From Xanthomonas cannabis pv. cannabis (GTDB lineage Bacteria > Pseudomonadota > Gammaproteobacteria > Xanthomonadales > Xanthomonadaceae): 38,306 nt of DNA. Position 1 is the stretch's first letter. Every line of letters starts with the position of its first letter. The DNA is taken from NCBI RefSeq assembly GCF_000802365.1, contig NZ_JSZE01000011.1:1-38306 (forward strand), written 5' to 3'. The position numbers were made by a program, and so were the translations under genes. Under the pieces are notes generated by a model that was given only the letters and a program-made list of their open reading frames with translations, ran no database searches and was not told where the DNA came from. Below are positions 2 through 22,525 of the stretch, one piece after another.

Positions 2-2260
2 TCGTATTCCGATGCCACGCTGGAGAACAAGCACCCCAGCGTGTATTCCAACGGCGCGCAGAAGTCCACCGAGCAGAACGTGGGCTTCGACTTCAATGGC
101 GATGGCCGCATCGGCAGCAATACCGATCCGTCCAACCTGCCGCGCGATTACTTCTACAACTGGGTGGCGACGGAACTGGACAACCGCAGCACCGATCGCC
201 AGCGTACCGGCGTCAACGGCTCGTTCCAGTTCAACATCAACGACTCGTGGACGGTGCTGGCCGATGCGGCCTACACCAAGCTCGAAGACCAGGACACCTC
301 GGTGGCCGCGCAGCTGCACACCGGCTGGGCGACCAACCAGTTGCAACCGGGGTCGGTGGTCGATTCCAACGGTGTGCTCGAATACGGCCAGTTCCGCTAC
401 AACCGGTTCCAGGCGCACTCGATGGCCGGCGTTGCCGATTCGGATTCGCTCAATACCAACCTGGAACTGCGTTTCGATGATGGCGGCCCGTTCCGTGCAT
501 CGTTCCGCTGGGTGCACGGCGATGCGCAGCGCACCTACGACGAAGCGCGTGCCGATGCGGTGGTGACGCGCGGCGACCAGATCACGCGTGCCGGTGGTGT
601 CACCCAATGGGCCAATGCCAATGGCCTGCCCACGGTGGATGCGTCGGTGGATTTCCGTGGCACCTACCCGGCGGTCAACCTCGGCACCGACGTGTCCAAC
701 CCGGACAACTGGCAGCTGATGTCCACCTGGGCGCAGGGCAACAAGATCGAAGCGACGATGGACGCCTTCCGCGCCGACGGCACCTTCGAGTTCGATGAAG
801 GCGTGGTGCGCGGCTTCCAGTTCGGCATTCGCTATGGCGAGCGCGAGGTCAAGCTGGACACCTATCGGTACCTGTCGCCGGTGTCCACCAGCTGCGCCGA
901 TCCCAATCGTTCGCTGTATTACTTCAAGGACCCGCTGATCGTGGACACCTGCAGCGGTGTCTCGGAAGCGCGCCTGCTGCCGTTCAATTCGATTCCCGGC
1001 TACTGGGCATACTTCAACGACTTCGATCCGCTCAAGGTCACCGGCCTGGGCAGCCAGGGCTTGCCGGCAATCAACCCGCAGGTCATGAAGGACCCGGTGG
1101 GCTATCTCAATAGCCTGTACCCCGGCAATGTGGCGTACCAGCAGGCCGCCGACTCGTACAAGGTCACCGAAAAGAGCACTGCGGCGTATTTTCTGGCCAA
1201 CCTGGAGGGTGGAACCGGCAGTGCAGTGCCGTGGACGGCCAACATCGGCGCACGCATCGTGCAGACCAAGCTGGCGATCGATCAGTACCTGAGCAGCGGC
1301 AATGTGTTTATCGGCAACGTGGAATGGAATGGCGTCAGCCCGGCGATCGGGACCAATCGCTTGAACCGTCAGTACACCGACGTGCTGCCCACCGCCAACC
1401 TGTCGCTGGACATCACCGACGCGCAGAAGCTGCGCTTTGCCTACAACAAGGCTGTCGCGCGTCAGGACCTGCCCGATCTGGGGCGCGGCCTGGTCAGCTT
1501 CTATGCCGTCAACGGCACGCCGCCGCGCAACCCGGCGCTGCCCTCCGATGCGGTGCTGTTCCTCAACGGACGCTCGGGTAACCCGGATCTGGATCCGTAC
1601 CGCGCCACCAACTACAACGCCTCGTGGGAATGGTATTTCTCCGACGCGTCGTTGATCAGCGTGGGTGCCTTCCTGATCGATGTGAAGTCGTTCCCGACCA
1701 CGGTGACCAACATCGAGCCCCAGCCCGACGCCGATGGCGTGGTGCGGCTGGGCGGCCCGGTGGAGCGCATCGTCAACGGCGGTGGCGGCAAGATCAAGGG
1801 TTTCGAAATCGGCTACCAACAGGCGTTCGACTTCCTGCCGGGCTGGTTGAGCGGGTTCGGCACCAACATCAACTACACCTTCTCCGACGCCGACACCGAC
1901 AACACCGATATCGAAGGCAATACGTTGCCCATCGGCGACAACTCCAAGCATCAGGCCAACGCGGTGTTGTGGTACCAGAAGGACAAGTTGCAGGCGCGTG
2001 TGGCCTATAACTGGCGCAGCAAGCGCTTCAGTCAGGTCAACAGCGGTGCGTGGGGCGATGAGCTGGCCATCTGGAACGACGACGTCGGCTACCTGGACGC
2101 CTCCTTCAGTTACGACGTCAACGATCACCTGACGCTCTACGCGCAAGCCACAAATCTCACTGGCGAAAGTGAGCGGCGTTACGCGCAGTGGACCAACCAC
2201 TATTACGACCAGAACATCTTCGAGCGTCGTTACTACGCCGGCCTGCGTCTGCGCTTCTGA
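2..2260 (+). CDS. TonB-dependent receptor, C-terminal part (5' end outside window)
   Basis: This is the C-terminal ~750 residues of an outer-membrane, TonB-gated transporter. The reading frame is open from the first bases of the window, so the signal peptide, TonB box and plug lie upstream. The visible part alternates short polar and aromatic strands as in a 22-strand beta-barrel. It contains a typical late-barrel segment (residues like NPDLDPYRATNYNASWEWYF) and ends in ...YAGLRLRF, the terminal Phe being the outer-membrane assembly signal. Its size fits the large receptors that Xanthomonas uses for plant-derived carbohydrates. The nearby GH6 enzyme and LacI regulator suggest a plant-polymer uptake context, but the substrate cannot be read from this fragment. 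Two hairpins follow the stop codon. Confidence 0.93.
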   Translation, partial: SYSDATLENKHPSVYSNGAQKSTEQNVGFDFNGDGRIGSNTDPSNLPRDYFYNWVATELDNRSTDRQRTGVNGSFQFNINDSWTVLADAAYTKLEDQDTSVAAQLHTGWATNQLQPGSVVDSNGVLEYGQFRYNRFQAHSMAGVADSDSLNTNLELRFDDGGPFRASFRWVHGDAQRTYDEARADAVVTRGDQITRAGGVTQWANANGLPTVDASVDFRGTYPAVNLGTDVSNPDNWQLMSTWAQGNKIEATMDAFRADGTFEFDEGVVRGFQFGIRYGEREVKLDTYRYLSPVSTSCADPNRSLYYFKDPLIVDTCSGVSEARLLPFNSIPGYWAYFNDFDPLKVTGLGSQGLPAINPQVMKDPVGYLNSLYPGNVAYQQAADSYKVTEKSTAAYFLANLEGGTGSAVPWTANIGARIVQTKLAIDQYLSSGNVFIGNVEWNGVSPAIGTNRLNRQYTDVLPTANLSLDITDAQKLRFAYNKAVARQDLPDLGRGLVSFYAVNGTPPRNPALPSDAVLFLNGRSGNPDLDPYRATNYNASWEWYFSDASLISVGAFLIDVKSFPTTVTNIEPQPDADGVVRLGGPVERIVNGGGGKIKGFEIGYQQAFDFLPGWLSGFGTNINYTFSDADTDNTDIEGNTLPIGDNSKHQANAVLWYQKDKLQARVAYNWRSKRFSQVNSGAWGDELAIWNDDVGYLDASFSYDVNDHLTLYAQATNLTGESERRYAQWTNHYYDQNIFERRYYAGLRLRF

Positions 2261-14242: not shown

Positions 14243-16060
14243 ATGGCTTCAACACTTCGCCCGATCCGCTCCCTGATGGCGGTCGCCATCGCTATCGCGG
14301 CCACCCCGGCCATGGCCGAGCAGGCCTTCGACCAGACCGTGTTCTTCGGTGACAGCCTCACCGACAGCGGCTACTACACCCCGTTGCTGCCGGCTGCTTC
14401 GCGCCCGGTCACCGGCAAGTTCACCACCAACCCGGGCTGGGTGTGGGCCGAATATGTCGGCGACCACTTCGGCACCAACGCAGCGCCCAACGGCAATGGC
14501 CAGACCGGCGACAACTACGCTGCCGGCGGCGCGCGCATCCAGGCCAGCTCGGTCAGCGCACTCGGCGCCGCGCCGTCGGTGACCAGCCAGATCAACACCT
14601 ATCTCACCGCCAATGGCGGCCGCGCCAACCCGAACGCGCTGTACAGCGTGTGGGGCGGCGCCAACGACCTGTTGGCCGCGGCCACCGTGCCGGCGCAGGC
14701 ACAGGCCATCATTGGCAGCGCGGTCACCGCCCAGGTGGGCGCCGTGGCCACGCTGCAGACTGCCGGCGCGCGCTACGTGATGGTGCCGACCATTCCCGAT
14801 ATCGGCATCACCCCGCGCTTCCGCGCCGGCGGCGCAGCCGCCATGGCCCAGGGCACCGCAGCGGCCGCCACCTACAACACCGCGCTGTTCAACGGGCTGC
14901 AATCGGCCGGCCTGCGCGTGATCCCGCTCGACACCTTCCACATGCTGCAGGAAATCGTCGCCGCGCCGGGCACCTTCGGCTTCACCAACATCACCAACAC
15001 CGCCTGCAACCCGGCACTGCCACTGCCGGCCTGCAACCCGACCAGCCTGGTCGCCGCCAACGCACCGACCACCTACGTCTTCGCCGACGGCATCCATCCG
15101 ACCACGGCGGTGCACCAGATCCTGGGCGAGTACGCGATTTCGCTGCTGGAAGCGCCGCGCCTGCAGCAGGTGCTGACGCACTCGGCGCAGGCCGGTGGTC
15201 GCGCCCGTGCCGATCAGGTGGCCTGGCATCTGGACGGCAAGCCGGACGCCGACGGGCTGCGCTGGTGGGGCAGCGTGCGCGGCGACATGCAGCGCTACGA
15301 CCACGCCGACCTGTACGACGGCATGGCCCCGGCCGGCCTGTTCGGCGTGGATTGGACGGCCGGCGACCTGGTGTTCGGCGGCTTTGCCGGCTTCGGCCGC
15401 ATGGACGCGGACTTCGGCAACCGCAACGGCAGCTTCAAGCAGGACGACACCACCCTGGGCGGCTTCTTCGGCTGGTACACCGGCCCGGTGTGGGTCAACG
15501 CCCAGGTCAGCTACAGCTGGCTGAGCTACGACGTGGACCGTGAAGTGCAGCTGGGGCCAGCGACCCGCGTGCACAGCGGCTCGCCGGACGGCAGCAATCT
15601 CACCGCCGCGCTCAACGCCGGCTATTCGCTGGGCGAAGGCAACGTCAAGTACGGCCCGGTGGCCGGCCTGACCTGGCAGAAGATCAAGCTCGACGGCTAC
15701 ACCGAAAGCGACGCCAGTGCCACCGCGCTGGGCTATGCCGACCAGGATATCGACTCGCTGGTCGGCCGCGTCGGCTTCCAGGTGCGCCTGGACGGCGCCG
15801 CGATCAAGCCGTACCTGCAGGCGACCTACGACCACGAGTTCAAGGACGGTGGCGAAGCCAGCGCCTGGCTGCAGTCGATGCCGGAAGTGGGCATGTACAC
15901 CGTCCCGGGCCAGAACTTCGACCGCAACTACGCCACCGTGGTGCTGGGCGCCCGCACCGGCCTGTGGGGCCTGCAGAGCAACGTCGGCCTGAGCACCACC
16001 ACCGCCCAGCGCAGTGCCCGCGATGCAACGCTGTTCGTGAACTTCAGCGGCAATTTCTGA
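14243..16060 (+). CDS. GDSL-type autotransporter esterase/lipase
   Basis: A type Va secreted esterase anchored in the outer membrane, related to EstA-like enzymes. The 605 residues begin with a signal peptide (LMAVAIAIAATPAMA). The SGNH/GDSL passenger has block I FFGDSLTDSGYY, a block II/III region with YAAGGAR and VWGGANDL, and the catalytic Asp-His pair in FADGIHPTTAVHQ. From about residue 340 an autotransporter beta-barrel follows, ending LFVNFSGNF with a terminal Phe. ATG 14243 gives a proper signal peptide; earlier in-frame codons do not. A strong hairpin (16098-16123) closes the unit. Confidence 0.95.
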   Translation: MASTLRPIRSLMAVAIAIAATPAMAEQAFDQTVFFGDSLTDSGYYTPLLPAASRPVTGKFTTNPGWVWAEYVGDHFGTNAAPNGNGQTGDNYAAGGARIQASSVSALGAAPSVTSQINTYLTANGGRANPNALYSVWGGANDLLAAATVPAQAQAIIGSAVTAQVGAVATLQTAGARYVMVPTIPDIGITPRFRAGGAAAMAQGTAAAATYNTALFNGLQSAGLRVIPLDTFHMLQEIVAAPGTFGFTNITNTACNPALPLPACNPTSLVAANAPTTYVFADGIHPTTAVHQILGEYAISLLEAPRLQQVLTHSAQAGGRARADQVAWHLDGKPDADGLRWWGSVRGDMQRYDHADLYDGMAPAGLFGVDWTAGDLVFGGFAGFGRMDADFGNRNGSFKQDDTTLGGFFGWYTGPVWVNAQVSYSWLSYDVDREVQLGPATRVHSGSPDGSNLTAALNAGYSLGEGNVKYGPVAGLTWQKIKLDGYTESDASATALGYADQDIDSLVGRVGFQVRLDGAAIKPYLQATYDHEFKDGGEASAWLQSMPEVGMYTVPGQNFDRNYATVVLGARTGLWGLQSNVGLSTTTAQRSARDATLFVNFSGNF

Positions 16061-16097
16061 GCCACGCCGAACCGCTGCAGGTAGCACCTTGCAAGAC

Positions 16098-16123
16098 ACG
16101 AGGGCCGGGCAACCGGCCCTCGT
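16098..16123. terminator. Hairpin after the esterase gene
   Basis: A perfect 11-bp stem (16098-16108 with 16113-16123) with a 4-nt loop lies 38 bp after the stop codon. No T-run follows, so it is a stem-only or 3'-stabilising terminator. Confidence 0.65.
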
Positions 16124-16178
16124 CACGTCTGCGCATTGCGTCCGATGCCTACACCCGCCTAAACTCTCCCAACGCCGT

Positions 16179-16252
16179 GCGGGCGTAGCTCAATGGTAGA
16201 GCTGTAGCTTCCCAAGCTACTGACGTGGGTTCGATTCCCATCGCCCGCTCCA
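16179..16252 (+). tRNA. tRNA-Gly (anticodon CCC)
   Basis: The full cloverleaf can be drawn. Acceptor stem 16179-16185 pairs with 16242-16248. The D arm has GCTC/GAGC, and the 5-bp anticodon stem (16204-16208 with 16216-16220) carries loop TTCCCAA, anticodon CCC at 16211-16213. The T arm has TTCGATT in its loop. CCA is encoded at 16250-16252. It reads GGG codons. An integrase gene begins 67 bp downstream, so its 3' half is the likely integration target of the island. Confidence 0.97.
16216..16252 (+). other. Probable attachment site (island left end) at the tRNA-Gly 3' end
   Basis: Tyrosine integrases encoded next to a tRNA gene usually recombine within the tRNA 3' half (anticodon or T arm to CCA). 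The tRNA remains complete here, so the element restored it on insertion. No second copy of this segment was seen in the window, so the right end should lie beyond 38,306. The exact core is not determinable. Confidence 0.5.
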
Positions 16253-16319
16253 GAGCTTCCGCCAAGTCTCTAAGTGTCTGACTTGGCTGGATATTCCGGC
16301 CGATTGATGATTCCGAGCG

Positions 16320-17873
16320 ATGCCCCTTGAGGTATCAATCGAGGTATCAATCTTGCCCAAGCCTCTGATGATTTCGCGCTCGGCTGGCCTGTATGCGCGC
16401 TTCTTTGTTCCCACTGATCTTCGGGCCTCCATTGGCTCGCGTTACCTTGTGCGCTCGTTGGGAAACCGTCGTGGTGACCACGCCAGGCTGGCGGCGGCTA
16501 CGATGGGAATGGCACTATCGATTGCATTCGATGCCATGCGGAAAGGGATTGCCGTGGACGTGGACGAGCTGCTGAAGAAGATTCGGGATGGAGAGATATA
16601 CGAGTTGACTCTGCACGATGTGAAGCTGCCCAACGGCACTCGCATCGCCCAAGCCCAGCTGGACACGCCCACGGATGCGGCGTTGTTTGGCGACCTGATG
16701 GCCAGAGCTGGAGCAGACGGATCCTCGAACATCGTCACCCCAAAGATGCCCAAACGTCCGAAGATTAACTGGGACGCGGATGAGCACAGCACAGGCAAGT
16801 CTGCAGGCGGGTTGATGCTGTCGAAGGCGATGGTCGATCATTTGAGGGACTTGGCCGGGGCTCGTCTGCATCAGAAGACCGTGTTGGAAAGCCGCCACAC
16901 GCTGCGCCTGTTTGCCGGGATCATCGGCAAAGACGTTCCCGTGGCCTCGCTGAGCCAAGACCACGTCCGGGCTTTCTTCGAGGGCGTGCGCTACTGGCCG
17001 TCGAATGCGACTAAGCGGCCGGCCTACCGAGACCTGTCGGTGCCCGAGGTCATCAAGCTGGCGAAGAAGAACGAGGAACCAGAGCCGGCGGCGTGGACCA
17101 TGGCCAAGCACCGGCAGCGGCTGAGCGTCTTCCTGGTGTCGCTGGTCGAGGGCAAGCATCTGGCGGTGAACCCGCTGGCGGGCATCCGGGCGATCGCCAC
17201 GCCGGACTCGGAAGACACGGGTTCGCCTTTCACGGACGCCGAGTTGAAGGCGATCTTTGACCCGGTGGAGTTCCCAAAGTGGGCGTCGAAATACCCGCAT
17301 CGGTGGTTCGGACCGATCTTGGGACTTTACTCGGGAGCTCGCGTCAACGAGATCGCGCAGCTCCGGCTGGAGGACATCGACGCCATCGACGGCGTGCCCG
17401 GCTTCTTTGTCCGCAAGATCGGGAAGAAGCAGAGCATCAAGAACAAGCACAGCCGGCGGTTCATCCCGCTGGCTCAGCCGGTCATTGAGGCCGGGTTCCT
17501 CACCTACGTGGAAGAGGCGAGGCAAGCTGGGGTCGAGCGGTTGTTCCCGGACCTGCCCAACTCGACAGGGCTGGGCTACGGGCGGCAGCTGAGTCGCCAG
17601 TTCTCGGTCTACATCAAGCGACAAGGGGTGGCGGAGAAGGGGCAGGGCTTCCACGGGTTCCGCCATACCATTGCTTCAAAGCTCGACGAGGCGGGGGTCT
17701 CGGCTTCAGCGATTGGAGCGCTCACTGGCCACGGGACTGGGCAGACCGTGTTGGAGAAGTTCTACATCGATCGACGTAGCCTGCCGGACCGGGTGGCAAC
17801 GCTTGCTAGGTTCAGTCCGCTACTGTCCCTTCCTATTTACAGTTCTGGAAAGTTTGCGGAAAACTTGAAATAG
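16320..17873 (+). CDS. Tyrosine-type site-specific integrase of the island
   Basis: Catalyses integration and excision of the element. The 517 residues comprise an N-terminal arm-binding/DUF6538-like start (SAGLYARFFVPTDLRASIGS), a SAM-like core-binding domain around residues 175-270, and a C-terminal catalytic domain. All catalytic residues are present: Arg341 (SGARVNEIAQL), a Lys near KNKHSRRFIPL, His445 and Arg448 (HGFRHT), His471 (LTGHG) and the nucleophile Tyr482 (KFYIDRR). The first codons are a perfect 12-bp tandem repeat (16329-16352), and no good ribosome-binding site precedes ATG 16320, so the true start might be ATG 16368. It sits directly after tRNA-Gly. Confidence 0.95.
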   Translation: MPLEVSIEVSILPKPLMISRSAGLYARFFVPTDLRASIGSRYLVRSLGNRRGDHARLAAATMGMALSIAFDAMRKGIAVDVDELLKKIRDGEIYELTLHDVKLPNGTRIAQAQLDTPTDAALFGDLMARAGADGSSNIVTPKMPKRPKINWDADEHSTGKSAGGLMLSKAMVDHLRDLAGARLHQKTVLESRHTLRLFAGIIGKDVPVASLSQDHVRAFFEGVRYWPSNATKRPAYRDLSVPEVIKLAKKNEEPEPAAWTMAKHRQRLSVFLVSLVEGKHLAVNPLAGIRAIATPDSEDTGSPFTDAELKAIFDPVEFPKWASKYPHRWFGPILGLYSGARVNEIAQLRLEDIDAIDGVPGFFVRKIGKKQSIKNKHSRRFIPLAQPVIEAGFLTYVEEARQAGVERLFPDLPNSTGLGYGRQLSRQFSVYIKRQGVAEKGQGFHGFRHTIASKLDEAGVSASAIGALTGHGTGQTVLEKFYIDRRSLPDRVATLARFSPLLSLPIYSSGKFAENLK

Positions 17874-18205
17874 TTAGTTATGGAGTCTAGCCAGCAGCCG
17901 TTTAGCTAGTCGCGTATGAACTTTACCTGACAACGTTATGACTAGAGTGGGAGCGAAGCCAATTTAGCTAGCCCATAGCTGGCGAGGCGTGGCCGATGCT
18001 CGGGAGACACGCTGCGAGTTCATTCATTGGCGACGAAGTTGGATACCCTCGGCGAGGCAGCGGGCACATCGCCTGGGGAATAATGCGGCACGTTATGCAG
18101 CATTGTCCAGTTTGTCGAAGCCTATACCGACTGCGGATTGCACGGAGTTCTTTTCTAATAATTTTCTTAAACGGTTGTGGTGAATTATTCAGCGCTTGAC
18201 GGGGC
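17874..18205. other. Gene-poor stretch after the integrase
   Basis: About 330 bp with no convincing gene. The imperfect repeated word TTAGCTAG occurs twice (around 17900 and 17965). The composition shifts from G+C-rich to A/T-rich near 18150, marking the junction with the following cassette. It could hold sites for excision factors, but nothing specific is visible. Confidence 0.4.
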
Positions 18206-19051
18206 TTAGAGTTTTAATGTCCTGTGGTAAATCACCTCTTTGTTTCGCTCATCTCGGTGAATTCCAATATAGAAAACTGCGGCATGAAAACTGTTTTCAA
18301 TTCTAAACGCTTGAAAGTAATACCGAGTTGCCGCAGCGGGGGTGGTAGCATCACCTTCTTTGAGATGATCCTCTTTTTCGTCCTGGTGAATTTTCTTATC
18401 CTCATTGAGGACGGTCAGGTTATACTTAATTCCGCCGCCGGTTGCTGCATATTTAACTCCTCGGCTTTTAAAGTAGTTGGCAAGTGTCCCTTCTGATTTG
18501 TTATGTCTAACAAGATCTCTTAAGGCAAATGTCGCCTTTATGGCAAAGTCAAAGCGATGTTTTGGTATTTCGTCGCAAGTTTCAAACGCATTATCGAAGA
18601 GCTTCAGGTTTTTTGCTGAGCGAGCTATGGCTTTTATTTTTTCAGATAAAAGTGATTCTTGTGGAAAAAAAAGTTCGCATAGTTTTTGATATAAAGCATC
18701 TAAGAAATCCCCATGTTCAGCGAAGGCTGTATATTTTGGCCAGCTTACTTCATCCATGCCGTCACTTTTTTGCCCTTGGATGTCCTTGATTTCAATCAGT
18801 TCCTTTCGGAGCTCAAAAGGAAGTGGGGCATAGGGGAGGGCAAAAATCCTTACTTGGCTATAGTCGTCGTGTGAGTTCTGATAAGCATGGACCGCAGCAG
18901 CAGCATGGCTTGGATCAGGAACTATAATATATTCTCCACTCTTGGTTCTCTCGGCTATAACCAATGTTGCATCTAGGTCATAAAGGCCGGCTTGTGTGAT
19001 GAAGCGTGTTCTCAGCTCTCGAGGAAGTCCAATTATGCATGCAGTGCTCAT
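18206..19051 (-). CDS. Second gene of the A/T-rich cassette, unknown function
   Basis: A 281-residue cytosolic protein with no signal peptide or membrane helix. No family recognised. The N-terminal third (CIIGLPRELRTRF, DATLVIAERTKSGEYIIVPD) looks like an alpha/beta domain. The middle is helical and charged (LSEKIKAIARSAKNLKLFD). The C-terminal third has a probable basic nucleic-acid-binding region (RHNKSEGTLANYFKSRGV, then ATGGGIKYNL). It starts 10 bp after the preceding gene with a strong AAGGAG ribosome-binding site, so the two are co-translated. Base composition is much richer in A/T than the core genes, implying transfer. It may be the effector or the partner of the OST-HTH-like protein; this is inference. 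Confidence 0.85.
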   Translation of the reverse strand: MSTACIIGLPRELRTRFITQAGLYDLDATLVIAERTKSGEYIIVPDPSHAAAAVHAYQNSHDDYSQVRIFALPYAPLPFELRKELIEIKDIQGQKSDGMDEVSWPKYTAFAEHGDFLDALYQKLCELFFPQESLLSEKIKAIARSAKNLKLFDNAFETCDEIPKHRFDFAIKATFALRDLVRHNKSEGTLANYFKSRGVKYAATGGGIKYNLTVLNEDKKIHQDEKEDHLKEGDATTPAAATRYYFQAFRIENSFHAAVFYIGIHRDERNKEVIYHRTLKL

Positions 19052-19061
19052 TTTGCGCTCC

Positions 19062-19907
19062 TTAAGTGCGAGTGCGGATGAGGCTCGTTGCTACCAATAT
19101 GGGAAGAACTATTTTCTCGAGATCTGCGTCGGAAGTTATCTCTAAGAGCTTGAATATGTGCTCTCGAACGTGTGAAATTTTTTCCGCTTGAGAATCAGTA
19201 GTCCATTGCTTTTGTTGGACCAAAAGATGTGCTGCATCAATTCCGTTAGCAGCCGACCATTGCGATATCTCCCGATAAACCCTTTCTATTCTGAAAGACT
19301 TCCATTGAGGAGCATTTTCTCCTAACGCTTGTGTAAAAGTTAGATTCAATGCGCTGGAGTATTCGGCGTTGTTTAGCATTTCATCAAGAATTAATCGATG
19401 ATCTTCAGCGATTCTTGTGTCTCGCAAGAATTCGAGCATCCATTTTTTCAAAATGTCTTTGCTTAACGGAAGTATTTCGAGAAATTTTGAGGGGTCAGGT
19501 GCTAAAAAATTTTCTCCATCAGTTTTGAAGTGCACAACATCAAACGAATCTTTGTTGAGAAATCTTTTTCTGGAGGCATCCTGATTTAAGAAGGCCTGCC
19601 AAACATCGCTTCTAATAACAACTGATTTTCTTTGCTGAATCGGTGTTGAGGGTTCAACTACAGCTTTTGGATTAAGGCTGACGATTATATCGCCCCCTTC
19701 CGCAGTTGAAATTGAAGCCAACCCTCCCTGTGAGCGCTCTAGGAAATCTTTAAACTTTTTGTATCCCATCGCCTTTTCGTCAAAGCGTCCAAGGCCCGCC
19801 AGAGCATATTCCGCTATCAGACGTTGTTTCAGTCTTGCAGCTTTTTCTGGCCCTGATTGGAGCAGCCGCCTCAGGATCTTGCCCGCTTGGATTTCTGTAG
19901 TATTCAT
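19062..19907 (-). CDS. OST-HTH/LOTUS-like domain protein, first gene of the A/T-rich cassette
   Basis: A 281-residue protein. Residues ~8-75 (LRRLLQSGPEKAARLKQRL... GRFDEKAMGYKKFKDFLERS ... GGDIIVSL) resemble an OST-HTH/LOTUS winged-helix domain: the pattern phe-x-K-x-x-GYKKFxDFL followed by a short beta wing. OST-HTH domains bind RNA (G-quadruplex or structured RNA) in characterised proteins. Residues ~95-180 (VVIRSDVWQAFLNQDASRKR, FLAPDPSKFLEILPLS) form a second compact domain, and the rest is helical. The start at 19907 has AAGGA 8 nt upstream. A consensus promoter, a foldable leader and an intrinsic terminator precede it, so expression probably depends on terminator read-through. Assignment of the domain is by eye. 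Confidence 0.8.
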   Translation of the reverse strand: MNTTEIQAGKILRRLLQSGPEKAARLKQRLIAEYALAGLGRFDEKAMGYKKFKDFLERSQGGLASISTAEGGDIIVSLNPKAVVEPSTPIQQRKSVVIRSDVWQAFLNQDASRKRFLNKDSFDVVHFKTDGENFLAPDPSKFLEILPLSKDILKKWMLEFLRDTRIAEDHRLILDEMLNNAEYSSALNLTFTQALGENAPQWKSFRIERVYREISQWSAANGIDAAHLLVQQKQWTTDSQAEKISHVREHIFKLLEITSDADLEKIVLPILVATSLIRTRT

Positions 19908-19933
19908 TTGGCTATTCCTTTATACCCGCCCAT

Positions 19934-20122
19934 ACTAAAAAACCACTACGCAGGGTAGTGGTTTTTAGTTTTAAATGGTACTTTTTTGAGATTCCCTAAC
20001 TTGCGGACGTCGTATGAAAAAGAGAACCTCAACCTTTTCCATCACTTTGGCCCCCGGCAAGCGTCCTAGAAGTAGTCAGATTCATTGATCTGCTGATTCT
20101 TTGGACTAATTTCCATTTAGCC
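19934..20122 (-). ncRNA. Candidate structured leader RNA upstream of the OST-HTH cassette
   Basis: Transcription from the promoter at 20127-20155 should start near 20121 and stop at the terminator 19938-19966, giving an RNA of ~190 nt. The 5' end (plus-strand 20113-20119) can pair over 7 bp with 19972-19978, just before the terminator, closing the whole molecule. Inside are a hairpin (CAGAU/AUCUG) and two crossing 5-bp helices (20062-20066 with 20005-20009, and 20057-20061 with 20000-20004), a possible pseudoknot. No coding frame is evident. Structure is by eye only. Confidence 0.55.
19938..19966 (-). terminator. Intrinsic terminator 31 bp before the cassette start codon
   Basis: A perfect 12-bp inverted repeat (19938-19949 with 19955-19966, 5-nt loop) with a T-run on the minus-strand side; it reads as a terminator in both directions. 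It lies inside the only visible leader of the cassette, so it should attenuate the two genes and define the 3' end of a short RNA. Confidence 0.8.
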
Positions 20123-20126
20123 GAAA

Positions 20127-20155
20127 ATTGTAGCTGGTCTGAATGAGTCTGTCAA
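20127..20155 (-). promoter_or_regulatory. Consensus sigma-70 promoter of the cassette
   Basis: On the minus strand a perfect -35 box TTGACA (20150-20155) is separated by exactly 17 bp from TACAAT (20127-20132), five of six matches to the -10 consensus. The expected start is near 20121, which is 214 bp upstream of the first coding ATG. Confidence 0.75.
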
Positions 20156-20487
20156 CCCATCATCTTCATCATCTACGTTCCTGTTGACGCTCATGGTTAC
20201 GGTAGATGGCACGCCTTGTCAACTAGTATGTGAATGTGTCATCTGCTGCTCGTCAAGTATAGCTTGACTTGACGCCTTGACCTTTCCCCGGTCTTTTCGC
20301 TACGTGCCTGGAACGTGCCATGCCGCCTTTCCTGGAGCCTCAACTCGTTTCCGCTACAGGAGTGGCTGGCGCATAGGGACTAGCCAGATATTTCCCTCTG
20401 AGATGCACAGTATGTGTCTAACACCCACAGAATTCGACGCGCCTTGTCGACCACCGTGCGTTTTAGGTGCTTTGGCGCGAGTGATCT
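20156..20487. other. Gene-poor junction between two island segments
   Basis: No convincing gene. GTCAAC/GTTGAC words alternate in direct and inverse orientation around 20151-20225, and CTTGAC repeats near 20260-20285. The A/T-rich cassette ends here and the G+C-rich conjugation-like block begins, so this may be a recombination joint. Confidence 0.4.
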
Positions 20488-20868
20488 TCAGCTGGTCAGC
20501 TGCAACCACAACACCAATAGCACCATTGGTAGTCCGCTGAGCACTGACACGACCCAGAAAGCTCCCATCACGGCCAGCGGCGTCATGACCCACCACTGGG
20601 CAGCCGTAAATCCCTGGTCGCGCCGCCGAGCTGCGCCGGCCTCCTGCGGATACAGCCGCTCCGCTTTCCGCAGGCCCCGGCGAGCCATCAGCGGCCCGAC
20701 GATGAAGCCGAACGGGCCCAGGAAGAGCAGGCTCAGCGAGAACCACCAGAAGAACCGGTTGTGCGGGGTGGTCACCTTTTTAGGGGCAGCGCGCCTTGCG
20801 CCATCCCTATAGAGGCCAATCAGGGTGCCAGCGGAAGTCCCAACCATCGGATTCGATTCGGTCTTCAT
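20488..20868 (-). CDS. Integral membrane protein of an ICE-like operon
   Basis: A 126-residue protein with two clear hydrophobic regions (WWFSLSLLFLGPFGFIVGPL and WWVMTPLAVMGAFWVVSVLS, continuing into LPMVLLVLWLQL). A basic loop lies between them (RRGLRKAERLYPQEAGAARR). No family recognised. Its ATG overlaps the stop of the upstream lipoprotein gene by 4 bp (20865-20868), so the two are translationally coupled. The context suggests a part of a mating-pair or element-maintenance operon. Confidence 0.8.
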   Translation of the reverse strand: MKTESNPMVGTSAGTLIGLYRDGARRAAPKKVTTPHNRFFWWFSLSLLFLGPFGFIVGPLMARRGLRKAERLYPQEAGAARRRDQGFTAAQWWVMTPLAVMGAFWVVSVLSGLPMVLLVLWLQLTS

Positions 20869-21179
20869 TTGGCGTAGGCCCTCCAGATGCCATCGCTCTT
20901 GGCATAGCGCAAGTTCTTGTTCACGGGGATCGGCACCTGCCGGCCCTCAATGCTCAGCACTGCCTGGCCGCGTGTGTCGCAGCGGTAGCCATCGGCGCCT
21001 TCCGCTTCCGCGCAGGCGGTCAGTTCGAAGTTTTGGACGTCGGTCACCTGGCCGGCGCCGCTGTCTTTCAGCAGTCGGATAAAAGCTTCCTTGGCATTGT
21101 CAGATGAGGGCTTGCCGCCGCAGGCGGTCAGGCCCAAGGCCATGGTCAACGCGACCAGGCCAATCCATGCGTTTTTCAT
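20865..21179 (-). CDS. Small lipoprotein
   Basis: A 104-residue lipoprotein with signal peptide and lipobox (LVALTMALGLTACGGKPSSD; Cys is the lipidated residue). The mature part is small and has two more Cys (ELTACAEAEGADGYRCDTRG) that may form a disulfide. It sits between an exported protein gene and a membrane protein gene on the same strand, forming a three-gene operon. Function unknown; such small lipoproteins are frequent on integrative conjugative elements. Confidence 0.85.
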   Translation of the reverse strand: MKNAWIGLVALTMALGLTACGGKPSSDNAKEAFIRLLKDSGAGQVTDVQNFELTACAEAEGADGYRCDTRGQAVLSIEGRQVPIPVNKNLRYAKSDGIWRAYAK

Positions 21180-21233
21180 GTCGTTCCTTTTTTGAGGGAT
21201 GGTGACGGGGAAGGCGGGCCAAGCCGGGACCTA

Positions 21234-21986
21234 CTACTTGTCGCGGTTCCCGTCGGGCCTGAAGGCAGCAATCCAGAGCCTGGTGTCTTTGAAGGGCGTC
21301 AGCATCCCCGACGGTCCGGGATGCAGATCTGCGGTCTGGATGAATCCCGAGACCCACGCCACGCGCAGGGCGACATCGACGGCGCGGTCAGCCACGCCGG
21401 GCCGGCTCACATTGACGACAAACGGCTGGGCCGGAGGGTTGGGGCCGTTGGAGCGCTGGGCGCCCGTGTTGGGCTTGCTGGGCAGCACACGGATGCCGCT
21501 GAGCGAGTCCCGGCCTTTCCACAGGGCAGCGCTGTTGAGCTCCGCTGTATCGCCCAGGTCGTCAGTTTCAGTCACCGCGGCATCGAAGCAGGTGCGGAAG
21601 GTCTCGACGCTCGATGCCGTCGGGCTGGTCCAGATGCGGGCCTCTGCGGTCCAGCAGGGCAAGGAAGCGCCCCACTCGGTGAAGGTCAATGCAACTCGGG
21701 GCCAGTCCAACTTCCCGAGCTGGGCCTGCTGATGGTTGTCGCCCCTGAAGAGCCCGGGCAGCTTTCCGGCGCCGCTGAGGGGCTCATAGATCGAGCCCGT
21801 CCCCTGGCTGCCGGCCTTGGTGTCGCCGTTCGGCTGGATGCCGACCATCTGCTTGCCCGAGTCAGCCAAGTTCTTTCCGAGCTGGCGGAAGAAGCCCGGC
21901 TTCTGTTCTTGTGCGCCCTGGGCCTGGGCGACGCCGGCCACGGTCAATGCGAGCAGGGCAGCGCCTGCAATCCTTGCGGTCTTCAT
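21234..21986 (-). CDS. Exported protein of unknown function, first gene of operon
   Basis: A 250-residue protein with a clear signal peptide (ARIAGAALLALTVAGVAQAQ, cleavage after AQA). The mature part has a Gly/Lys-rich start (FFRQLGKNLADSGKQMVGIQ), two Cys residues (SLPCWTAEARIW, FRTCFDAAVTETDD) that could pair, and a beta-rich core (PFVVNVSRPGVADRAVDVAL). No family recognised. It is divergently transcribed from the XRE regulator gene with ~50 bp between them; the shared region carries two TTCATGAA palindromes, so the regulator may control it. Confidence 0.85.
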   Translation of the reverse strand: MKTARIAGAALLALTVAGVAQAQGAQEQKPGFFRQLGKNLADSGKQMVGIQPNGDTKAGSQGTGSIYEPLSGAGKLPGLFRGDNHQQAQLGKLDWPRVALTFTEWGASLPCWTAEARIWTSPTASSVETFRTCFDAAVTETDDLGDTAELNSAALWKGRDSLSGIRVLPSKPNTGAQRSNGPNPPAQPFVVNVSRPGVADRAVDVALRVAWVSGFIQTADLHPGPSGMLTPFKDTRLWIAAFRPDGNRDK

Positions 21987-22027
21987 GAAATCCCCGTGTG
22001 TTGGTGGAGGGTGCTACATTTCATGAA
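21982..22027. promoter_or_regulatory. Two TTCATGAA palindromes in the divergent control region
   Basis: The perfect 8-bp palindrome TTCATGAA occurs at 21982-21989 (over the start codon of the minus-strand operon) and again at 22020-22027 (just before the XRE gene). The 38-bp spacing is compatible with a repressor binding both sites. It is a candidate operator for the adjacent regulator. Confidence 0.4.
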
Positions 22028-22036
22028 GAGTCTGCC

Positions 22037-22420
22037 ATGCAGTGGAGGAGCAAGTCATGCTGTCCGGCCAACTTTTCAACATTCGTTCACGTGCCGAAGG
22101 CTTCCCCCCGAGCTCTCTTTGCTGCCCGCCTGAAACAGGCTCGGGAACTGCAAGGCATCCCAAGCCAGCGGGCTTTGGGGGTGCTGATGGGACTCGATAA
22201 GAAGTTGGCCAGTAGCCGGGTCAATCGCTACGAGAACGAGACCAGTGGCATTGACTTGGATGGGCTGGGGAAGCTGGCCGACACGTTGGGGGTGCCGATG
22301 GCCTACTTGGTCGCCGAGGACGACGACATCGCAAGGGTAATCTTAGCTCTCTCGCAGATGGCTCCTGAAGAGCGATCTCGCGCTATCGGTGCCTTGATGC
22401 GAGCAGCCCAACCGCTCTGA
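22037..22420 (+). CDS. XRE-family helix-turn-helix regulator
   Basis: A Cro/CI-like DNA-binding protein. The HTH is in LFAARLKQARELQGIPSQRA / LGVLMGLDKKLASSRVNRYE, followed by GLGKLADTLGVPMAYLVAED. The C-terminal tail is short and helical (ILALSQMAPEERSRAIGALM), so it lacks a separate effector domain. The start is uncertain: ATG 22037 (weak GAAGAG upstream) gives 127 residues and GTG 22091 gives 109. Divergent from the exported-protein operon; likely a local repressor. Confidence 0.85.
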   Translation: MQWRSKSCCPANFSTFVHVPKASPRALFAARLKQARELQGIPSQRALGVLMGLDKKLASSRVNRYENETSGIDLDGLGKLADTLGVPMAYLVAEDDDIARVILALSQMAPEERSRAIGALMRAAQPL

Positions 22421-22525
22421 TTGACCTGTCGCTCAGGGGGCATCAGCGGTGACTACTGAATAGATGTTCCAGATGCTTCTCACACGGCAACATGGTTCAC
22501 CAGGACGACATAGACGGAGCCTGCC

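What the first reader, a model, noticed from the sequence alone, without database searches (positions are those of the whole stretch)
18206..20155. RNA-plus-two-protein cassette: structured leader RNA, OST-HTH-like protein and unknown partner
Seen: a consensus promoter (TTGACA-N17-TACAAT), ~190 nt of non-coding leader with a 7-bp helix joining its two ends and a possible pseudoknot, an intrinsic terminator 31 bp before the start codon, then two tightly linked 281-residue genes, all A/T-rich and next to an integrase. Known: ncRNA-terminator-protein order is used by type III toxin-antitoxins, Abi/abiF modules and retrons; OST-HTH/LOTUS domains bind RNA. Inference: the RNA is a ligand, guide or antitoxin for the first protein, making an RNA-controlled defence module not matching any family I recognise.
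Basis: partly seen in the sequence, partly recalled or inferred. Interest (0 to 1): 0.85.

Follow-up and report, generated by a model that had tools for sequence, protein, structure and literature searches.

The report
Pseudoknot RNA with two unknown proteins
A rare bacterial gene cassette pairs a small, knotted, probably non-coding RNA with an RNA-binding-like protein and a partner protein that differs between relatives, and distant relatives keep the same layout, so it may be an undescribed RNA-controlled defence or toxin module.

Summary
On the minus strand are a near-consensus promoter, a ~190-nt leader, a terminator-like hairpin and two 281-codon genes 10 bp apart, in an A/T-rich stretch beside a tyrosine integrase at tRNA-Gly. 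Homologues of the first protein (P1) were found in 10 genomes (8 lineages, 18-31% identical to the window's P1). In 7 of 8 lineages a hairpin with a T-run lies just before P1; among 94 other ORFs tested, 2 had one. The leader is a folded RNA: in four relatives' leaders 13 of 38 pairs change on both sides (0 of 500 shuffles reach that), and in the window's own type a helix plus a loop-tail pseudoknot covary (4 of 15 pairs; 8 of 500 shuffles). The two RNA types do not find each other. P1 is weakly OST-HTH-like, with a UPF0158-like part. The partner (P2) belongs to at least two types with no detectable homology beyond a short start. No Pfam, NCBIfam, PADLOC or Rfam family was found for the proteins or RNA tested. 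Best reading: RNA and P1 form a complex that controls an exchangeable effector; function is inferred. Main rival: a purely cis-acting attenuator.

The parts
20127..20155 (-). sigma-70-type promoter TTGACA-N17-TACAAT
   Evidence: X. codiaei has TTGACA and TATAAT at the same place
19937..20126 (-). leader / candidate ncRNA, from the -10 box to the end of the T-run (transcription start and end inferred)
   Evidence: 3 of 126 interior sites differ from X. codiaei, against 20 of 221 fourfold sites in the two genes
20062..20066 (-). domain-2 closing helix, 5' strand GGACG
   Evidence: pairs with 20005-20009; one double change, in G245
20005..20009 (-). domain-2 closing helix, 3' strand CGTCC
20022..20031 (-). 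pseudoknot helix, 5' strand TGAGGTTCTC
   Evidence: pairs with 19987-19996; three double changes
19987..19996 (-). pseudoknot helix, 3' strand GGGAATCTCA in the 3' tail
19938..19966 (-). intrinsic-terminator-like hairpin between leader and P1 (symmetric)
19062..19907 (-). P1, 281 aa
19668..19907 (-). P1 residues 1-80, OST-HTH/LOTUS-like
   Evidence: homologue in L007 matches PF12872 at E 0.0036, below gathering; low-confidence model has helix-helix-helix-strand-strand order
19236..19616 (-). P1 residues about 98-224, UPF0158-like
   Evidence: P1 profile finds UPF0158 proteins; hhalign probability 95.3
18206..19051 (-). P2, 281 aa, type A partner
16320..17873 (+). tyrosine integrase next to tRNA-Gly, possible mover of the stretch (inferred)

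Best explanation
The cassette is a three-part RNA-protein module. Its own promoter makes a ~190-nt pseudoknotted ncRNA that mostly stops at the hairpin; read-through makes the two-gene message. P1, through its OST-HTH-like and perhaps its UPF0158-like part, binds the folded RNA. The RNA-P1 complex holds P2, an effector that is exchanged between lineages, inactive until an invader such as a phage disturbs the RNA, P1 or transcription. Shown: layout, RNA fold within two types, conservation, P1 followed by a partner ORF, different partner types. Inferred: a separate short transcript, RNA binding by P1, P2 as effector, inhibition by the RNA, and a defence or toxin-antitoxin role.
For: Hairpin with T-run before P1 in 7 of 8 lineages (8 of 9 leaders tested), against 2 of 94 non-P1 ORFs (binomial about 1e-11 with 2/95; lineages and loci are not fully independent). 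RNA: 13 of 38 pairs with double changes in four leaders, 0 of 500 shuffles; window type 4 of 15 pairs, 8 of 500 shuffles. A model from three leaders ranked the G013 leader first among non-training places in 210 kb, E 0.037, and gave it 17.2 bits against 6.3 for the next place in a full scan of 6 loci. Leader interior 3/126 changed against 20/221 fourfold sites, p 0.023. A partner ORF follows P1 directly in 9 of 10 genomes: type A in 4, type B in 4, a third kind in G803; G013 has an 18-codon start near the contig end. Rare: 4 of 35, 3 of 297, 5 of 398 and 4 of 398 genomes, own genome included each time. Integrase and low GC. Precedent: the ncRNA of an AbiF system (PMC12373285, abstract).
Against: No activity was tested. 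OST-HTH is below the cut-off and 7 of 8 P1 proteins do not match at all. The two RNA types do not find each other. G803 lacks the T-run. Partner types A and B show no homology beyond 17 N-terminal residues (hhalign probability 0.5%, E 0.12), so a shared P2 is not shown. Genome-wide, R1 does not list the G013 leader and gives unrelated places up to 21.1 bits. The hairpin is symmetric. No hit in viral contigs, phages or plasmids for the queries tried, apart from one partial type-B hit on a plasmid without an annotated P1. PADLOC gave only two weak matches among 10 relatives' proteins.
Confidence: 0.45

Rival explanations
1. Cis-acting autoregulation: P1 binds its own leader and changes read-through of the hairpin, as ribosomal-protein leaders do; the RNA has no role in trans.
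For: The hairpin lies directly before P1 (7 of 8 lineages); the pseudoknot tail lies next to it; an RNA-binding domain is suspected in P1.
Against: The conserved fold is long (about 150 nt) for simple attenuation; no competing anti-terminator fold was noticed, but none was searched for systematically.
Confidence: 0.32
2. Classic type III toxin-antitoxin: P1 itself is a toxin bound by the RNA, and P2 is accessory.
For: RNA-terminator-protein order and a pseudoknotted RNA, as in ToxIN (PMC5772629, seen in search listings with the start of the abstract).
Against: No direct repeat of 18 nt or more in the leader; no ToxN-type family match; P1 resembles OST-HTH plus UPF0158 instead.
Confidence: 0.08
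3. The RNA is a guide that directs the complex to nucleic acid targets.
For: A structured RNA next to a putative RNA-binding protein and a candidate effector.
Against: The leader interior hardly varies between the window and X. codiaei (3 of 126), so no variable guide segment is visible there; no known nuclease domain was found.
Confidence: 0.05
4. Leader-peptide attenuation or an ordinary 5' UTR without a functional RNA.
For: Four reading frames of 16-29 codons lie in the leader.
Against: Compensatory changes and layout conservation. Conservation of the short frames in relatives was not tested.
Confidence: 0.1

Closest known systems
AbiF / Abi_2 with its ncRNA (RCd22-AbiFCd of C. difficile)
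   Same: An ncRNA associated with the protein gene; the RNA neutralises the protein by direct binding (abstract of PMC12373285)
   Different: No Abi_2 match in the window proteins; two proteins instead of one; no abiF RNA among the Rfam matches
Type III toxin-antitoxin (ToxIN, CptIN)
   Same: RNA, terminator, protein order (recalled); pseudoknotted RNA (listing)
   Different: No direct repeat of 18 nt or more in the leader; no ToxN-type match; an extra partner gene
UPF0158 (PF03682) proteins
   Same: P1 residues about 98-224 align with them
   Different: The two such ORFs examined lack the P1-like N-terminal part; their surroundings were not searched for an RNA
OST-HTH/LOTUS proteins
   Same: N-terminal similarity; OST-HTH occurs in effector modules of bacterial TERNS3 systems (PMC8195603, two passages)
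   Different: There it is fused to S1 domains; here the match is below the cut-off

Membership tests
Type III toxin-antitoxin | Tandem-repeat antitoxin RNA (recalled) | tested here: not met
   No direct-repeat family of 18 nt or more has a copy in 19937-20126; shorter repeats not tested
Type III toxin-antitoxin | Toxin of the ToxN/CptN/TenpN kind (recalled) | tested here: not met
   No Pfam, NCBIfam or PADLOC match of the window's P1 or P2 beyond one chance-level cIII hit
Type III toxin-antitoxin | Terminator between RNA and protein gene | tested here: met
   the hairpin is symmetric
Type III toxin-antitoxin | RNA neutralises the toxin | not testable with these tools
   needs expression tests
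AbiF/Abi_2 | Abi_2 domain protein | tested here: not met
AbiF/Abi_2 | abiF RNA motif | tested here: not met
   Only a tRNA reached gathering in the window; the matches up to E 5 in 19900-20260 were to three other families
OST-HTH/LOTUS | PF12872 match at gathering score | tested here: not met
   1 of 8 P1 proteins, 17.6 bits against 23.8
OST-HTH/LOTUS | Winged-helix fold | tested here: inconclusive
   Order of helices and strands fits, but mean pLDDT is 42.3
UPF0158 | PF03682 similarity | tested here: inconclusive
   No match in a direct Pfam scan of 8 P1 proteins; profile searches link them

The most novel reading that the evidence does not exclude
A new class of three-part bacterial immune or toxin-antitoxin system, in which a pseudoknotted ncRNA and an OST-HTH/UPF0158 adaptor together hold an exchangeable effector, with a LOTUS-like protein as the RNA-reading part.
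Probability: 0.37. Interest if true: 0.88.

Novelty: new variant of a known kind. Interest (0 to 1): 0.7.

Why it matters
If true, it adds an RNA-controlled module built from protein families with little or no known bacterial function (UPF0158; LOTUS-like), gives such a protein a candidate RNA ligand that can be tested directly, and shows different effectors behind one RNA-protein core. It would also give a simple bacterial setting in which to ask what LOTUS-like domains bind.

Tried and rejected
Searches for relatives found none in viral contigs, phages or plasmids; one partial type-B partner hit on a Cupriavidus plasmid lies in a region without an annotated P1, which I did not search for one. 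PDB sequence searches gave only weak matches, which I judged chance: best E 0.11, 0.21, 0.096 and 0.014. Rfam matches of the leader below threshold (RNAI, snosnR71, psRNA14) were judged chance. The 7-bp end helix was rejected as conserved. A home-made structure-weighted alignment of leaders gave no convincing common fold; adding G303 to the MAFFT alignment weakened the consensus. Model R1 did not find the window, X. codiaei or G245 leaders, and G303 scored 3.9 bits at the right place, below chance places; R2 did not find the other RNA type. For the loop-tail helix, dinucleotide shuffles gave 0.10-0.59 for five leaders and 0.003-0.02 for the window type, mononucleotide shuffles 0.03-0.15 and 0.0015-0.0035; loops and tails were chosen by eye first, so the combined p values (8e-4, 3e-6) are optimistic. 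In one search this helix has one double-change pair of six and 83% of cells paired. X. codiaei loses the two outermost of 12 pairs of the window's helix. The AlphaFold model of P1 (mean pLDDT 42.3, 143) was too poor for a fold search; P2 was never accepted. A search for 18-nt or longer direct repeats showed no attachment-site pair that I recognised. Weak class-level matches: L036 looks like a lone UPF0158-type protein by eye; L035 was not examined. Paper PMC3710099 was opened for OST-HTH and had no occurrence in its main text.

Full report
What is there. On the minus strand of the window a near-consensus promoter (20155-20127) is followed by a 190-nt leader, a terminator-like hairpin (19938-19966) and two ORFs of 281 codons, P1 (19062-19907) and P2 (18206-19051), 10 bp apart. 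The four 500-bp bins from 18000 to 19999 have 42-46% GC, the next bin 50%, the other nine bins from 15500 to 22499 58-68%. A tyrosine integrase (16320-17873, +) and tRNA-Gly(CCC) (16179-16252) adjoin.

Homologues. P1 was found in 4 of 35 genomes of the genus, 3 of 297 of the family (14), 5 of 398 of the order and 4 of 398 of the phylum; these sets overlap and each count includes the window's own genome. Together there are 10 genomes, counted as 8 lineages by taking the three near-identical Xanthomonas copies as one. G1111 and G1060 are 70% identical in P1; all other pairs of lineages are 15-35%. Further matches (G1024, G1088) cover only part of P1, and their ORFs are UPF0158 proteins; of the two extra matches, L036 looks like one by eye and L035 was not examined. 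The window-type P2 was found in 3 of 35 genus genomes; a profile of it found only the window's genome among 369 of the class (30). G245 has the same pair, P1 30% (24) and P2 26% identical.

The leader. A hairpin with a T-run lies in the 80 nt before P1 in 8 of 9 leaders tested, 7 of 8 lineages (6 of 7 if G1111 and G1060 are merged); G803 has a hairpin without T-run. Of 101 background ORFs 8 were positive; 6 of these are P1 copies. One further P1 copy among the 101 was called from an upstream start and was negative. Of the other 94, 2 were positive, one of them the G303 partner gene itself. The background loci partly repeat the same genomic region. Promoter-like boxes in relatives were seen by eye. 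Between the window and X. codiaei the leader interior differs at 3 of 126 sites, fourfold sites of P1 and P2 at 20 of 221 (p 0.023) and the 200 nt upstream of the promoter at 61 of 195.

RNA structure. The leaders of G1009, G1111 and G1060 (48-74% identical) align by sequence and gave model R1 (100). Over 18 partly overlapping loci (210 kb) its best place outside the training copies is the G013 leader, E 0.037 (101); with filters off on 6 loci it scores 17.2 bits, the next place 6.3 (103). A scan of 10 whole genomes did not list the G013 leader and gave unrelated places up to 21.1 bits, so this match rests on position as well as score. On the four-leader alignment 94.5% of cells pair and 13 of 38 pairs have double changes; no shuffle of 500 reaches this (the alignment is fitted to the model). 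A loop-tail pseudoknot added to it keeps 83% of its cells paired, with one double-change pair of six. For the window type (window, X. codiaei, G245, aligned by sequence alone) the domain-2 helix and the loop-tail pseudoknot keep 43 of 44 cells paired, with double changes in 4 of 15 pairs; 8 of 500 shuffles reach that, and slid controls have 32-47% paired. The two RNA types look alike in layout (5' hairpin, longer hairpin, loop-tail pseudoknot, terminator-like hairpin; by eye), but neither model finds the other, so common descent of the RNAs is not shown.

The proteins. P1 residues 1-80 resemble OST-HTH: one of eight P1 proteins matches PF12872 with 17.6 bits, below the 23.8 cut-off; the low-confidence model has the helix and strand order of a winged helix. 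Residues about 98-224 align with UPF0158 (hhalign probability 95.3), although no P1 protein matches PF03682 directly. The ORF after P1 is of type A in the Xanthomonas copies and G245, of type B in G303, G1009, G1111 and G1060, and of a third, unrelated-looking kind in G803. Types A and B share a short start (I.AGLPRSL-like), but a profile comparison finds no homology beyond 17 residues (probability 0.5%, E 0.12). So the whole partner seems to be exchanged; a swapped C-terminal domain on a common base is not supported. Pfam, NCBIfam and PADLOC scans of the window's two proteins gave nothing beyond one chance-level Pfam hit; scans of relatives gave only weak or sub-threshold matches (NCBIfam was not run on relatives).

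Interpretation. Shown: a conserved, structured, hairpin-ended leader tied to P1; a partner ORF behind P1 in 9 of 10 genomes; different partner types; rarity; an integrase next door in the window. Inferred: P1 binds the RNA, the complex restrains the partner, and the module acts in defence or as a toxin-antitoxin system. The main rival is cis-acting autoregulation. The nearest design precedent is AbiF with its ncRNA (PMC12373285: abstract and section list); ToxIN was seen only in search listings (PMC5772629). OST-HTH in a bacterial conflict system is mentioned in PMC8195603 (two passages). Library searches for UPF0158 (one paper), OST-HTH with toxin-antitoxin (three), OST-HTH with LOTUS domain and bacterial (ten) and OST-HTH with prokaryotic and noncoding RNA (none) showed no description of this cassette in their listings; the library holds open PMC papers only.

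Noticed in passing
L032 1300-1719 (+), L033 1489-2109 (-), L036 1420-2097 (-): UPF0158 or UPF0158-like proteins (L036 by eye only) brought in by the P1 profile. They may resemble the source of P1's C-terminal half.
   Followed up: partly
L011 about 86-144 (-): In G013 the gene after P1 starts (MPVALIAGLPQS...) and meets a stop after 18 codons, close to the contig end.
   Followed up: no
L029 5986-6627: A Cupriavidus plasmid gene annotated as hypothetical protein matches the type B partner (30.5% identity over 62%) with no annotated P1 beside it.
   Followed up: no
L007 2-400 and 2793-3821: In G245 a transposase-like fragment and an AAA-type ATPase-like ORF (both by eye) flank the cassette.
   Followed up: no
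L016 about 500-900: About three near-copies of a ~130-bp intergenic repeat (by eye) lie upstream of the G303 cassette.
   Followed up: no
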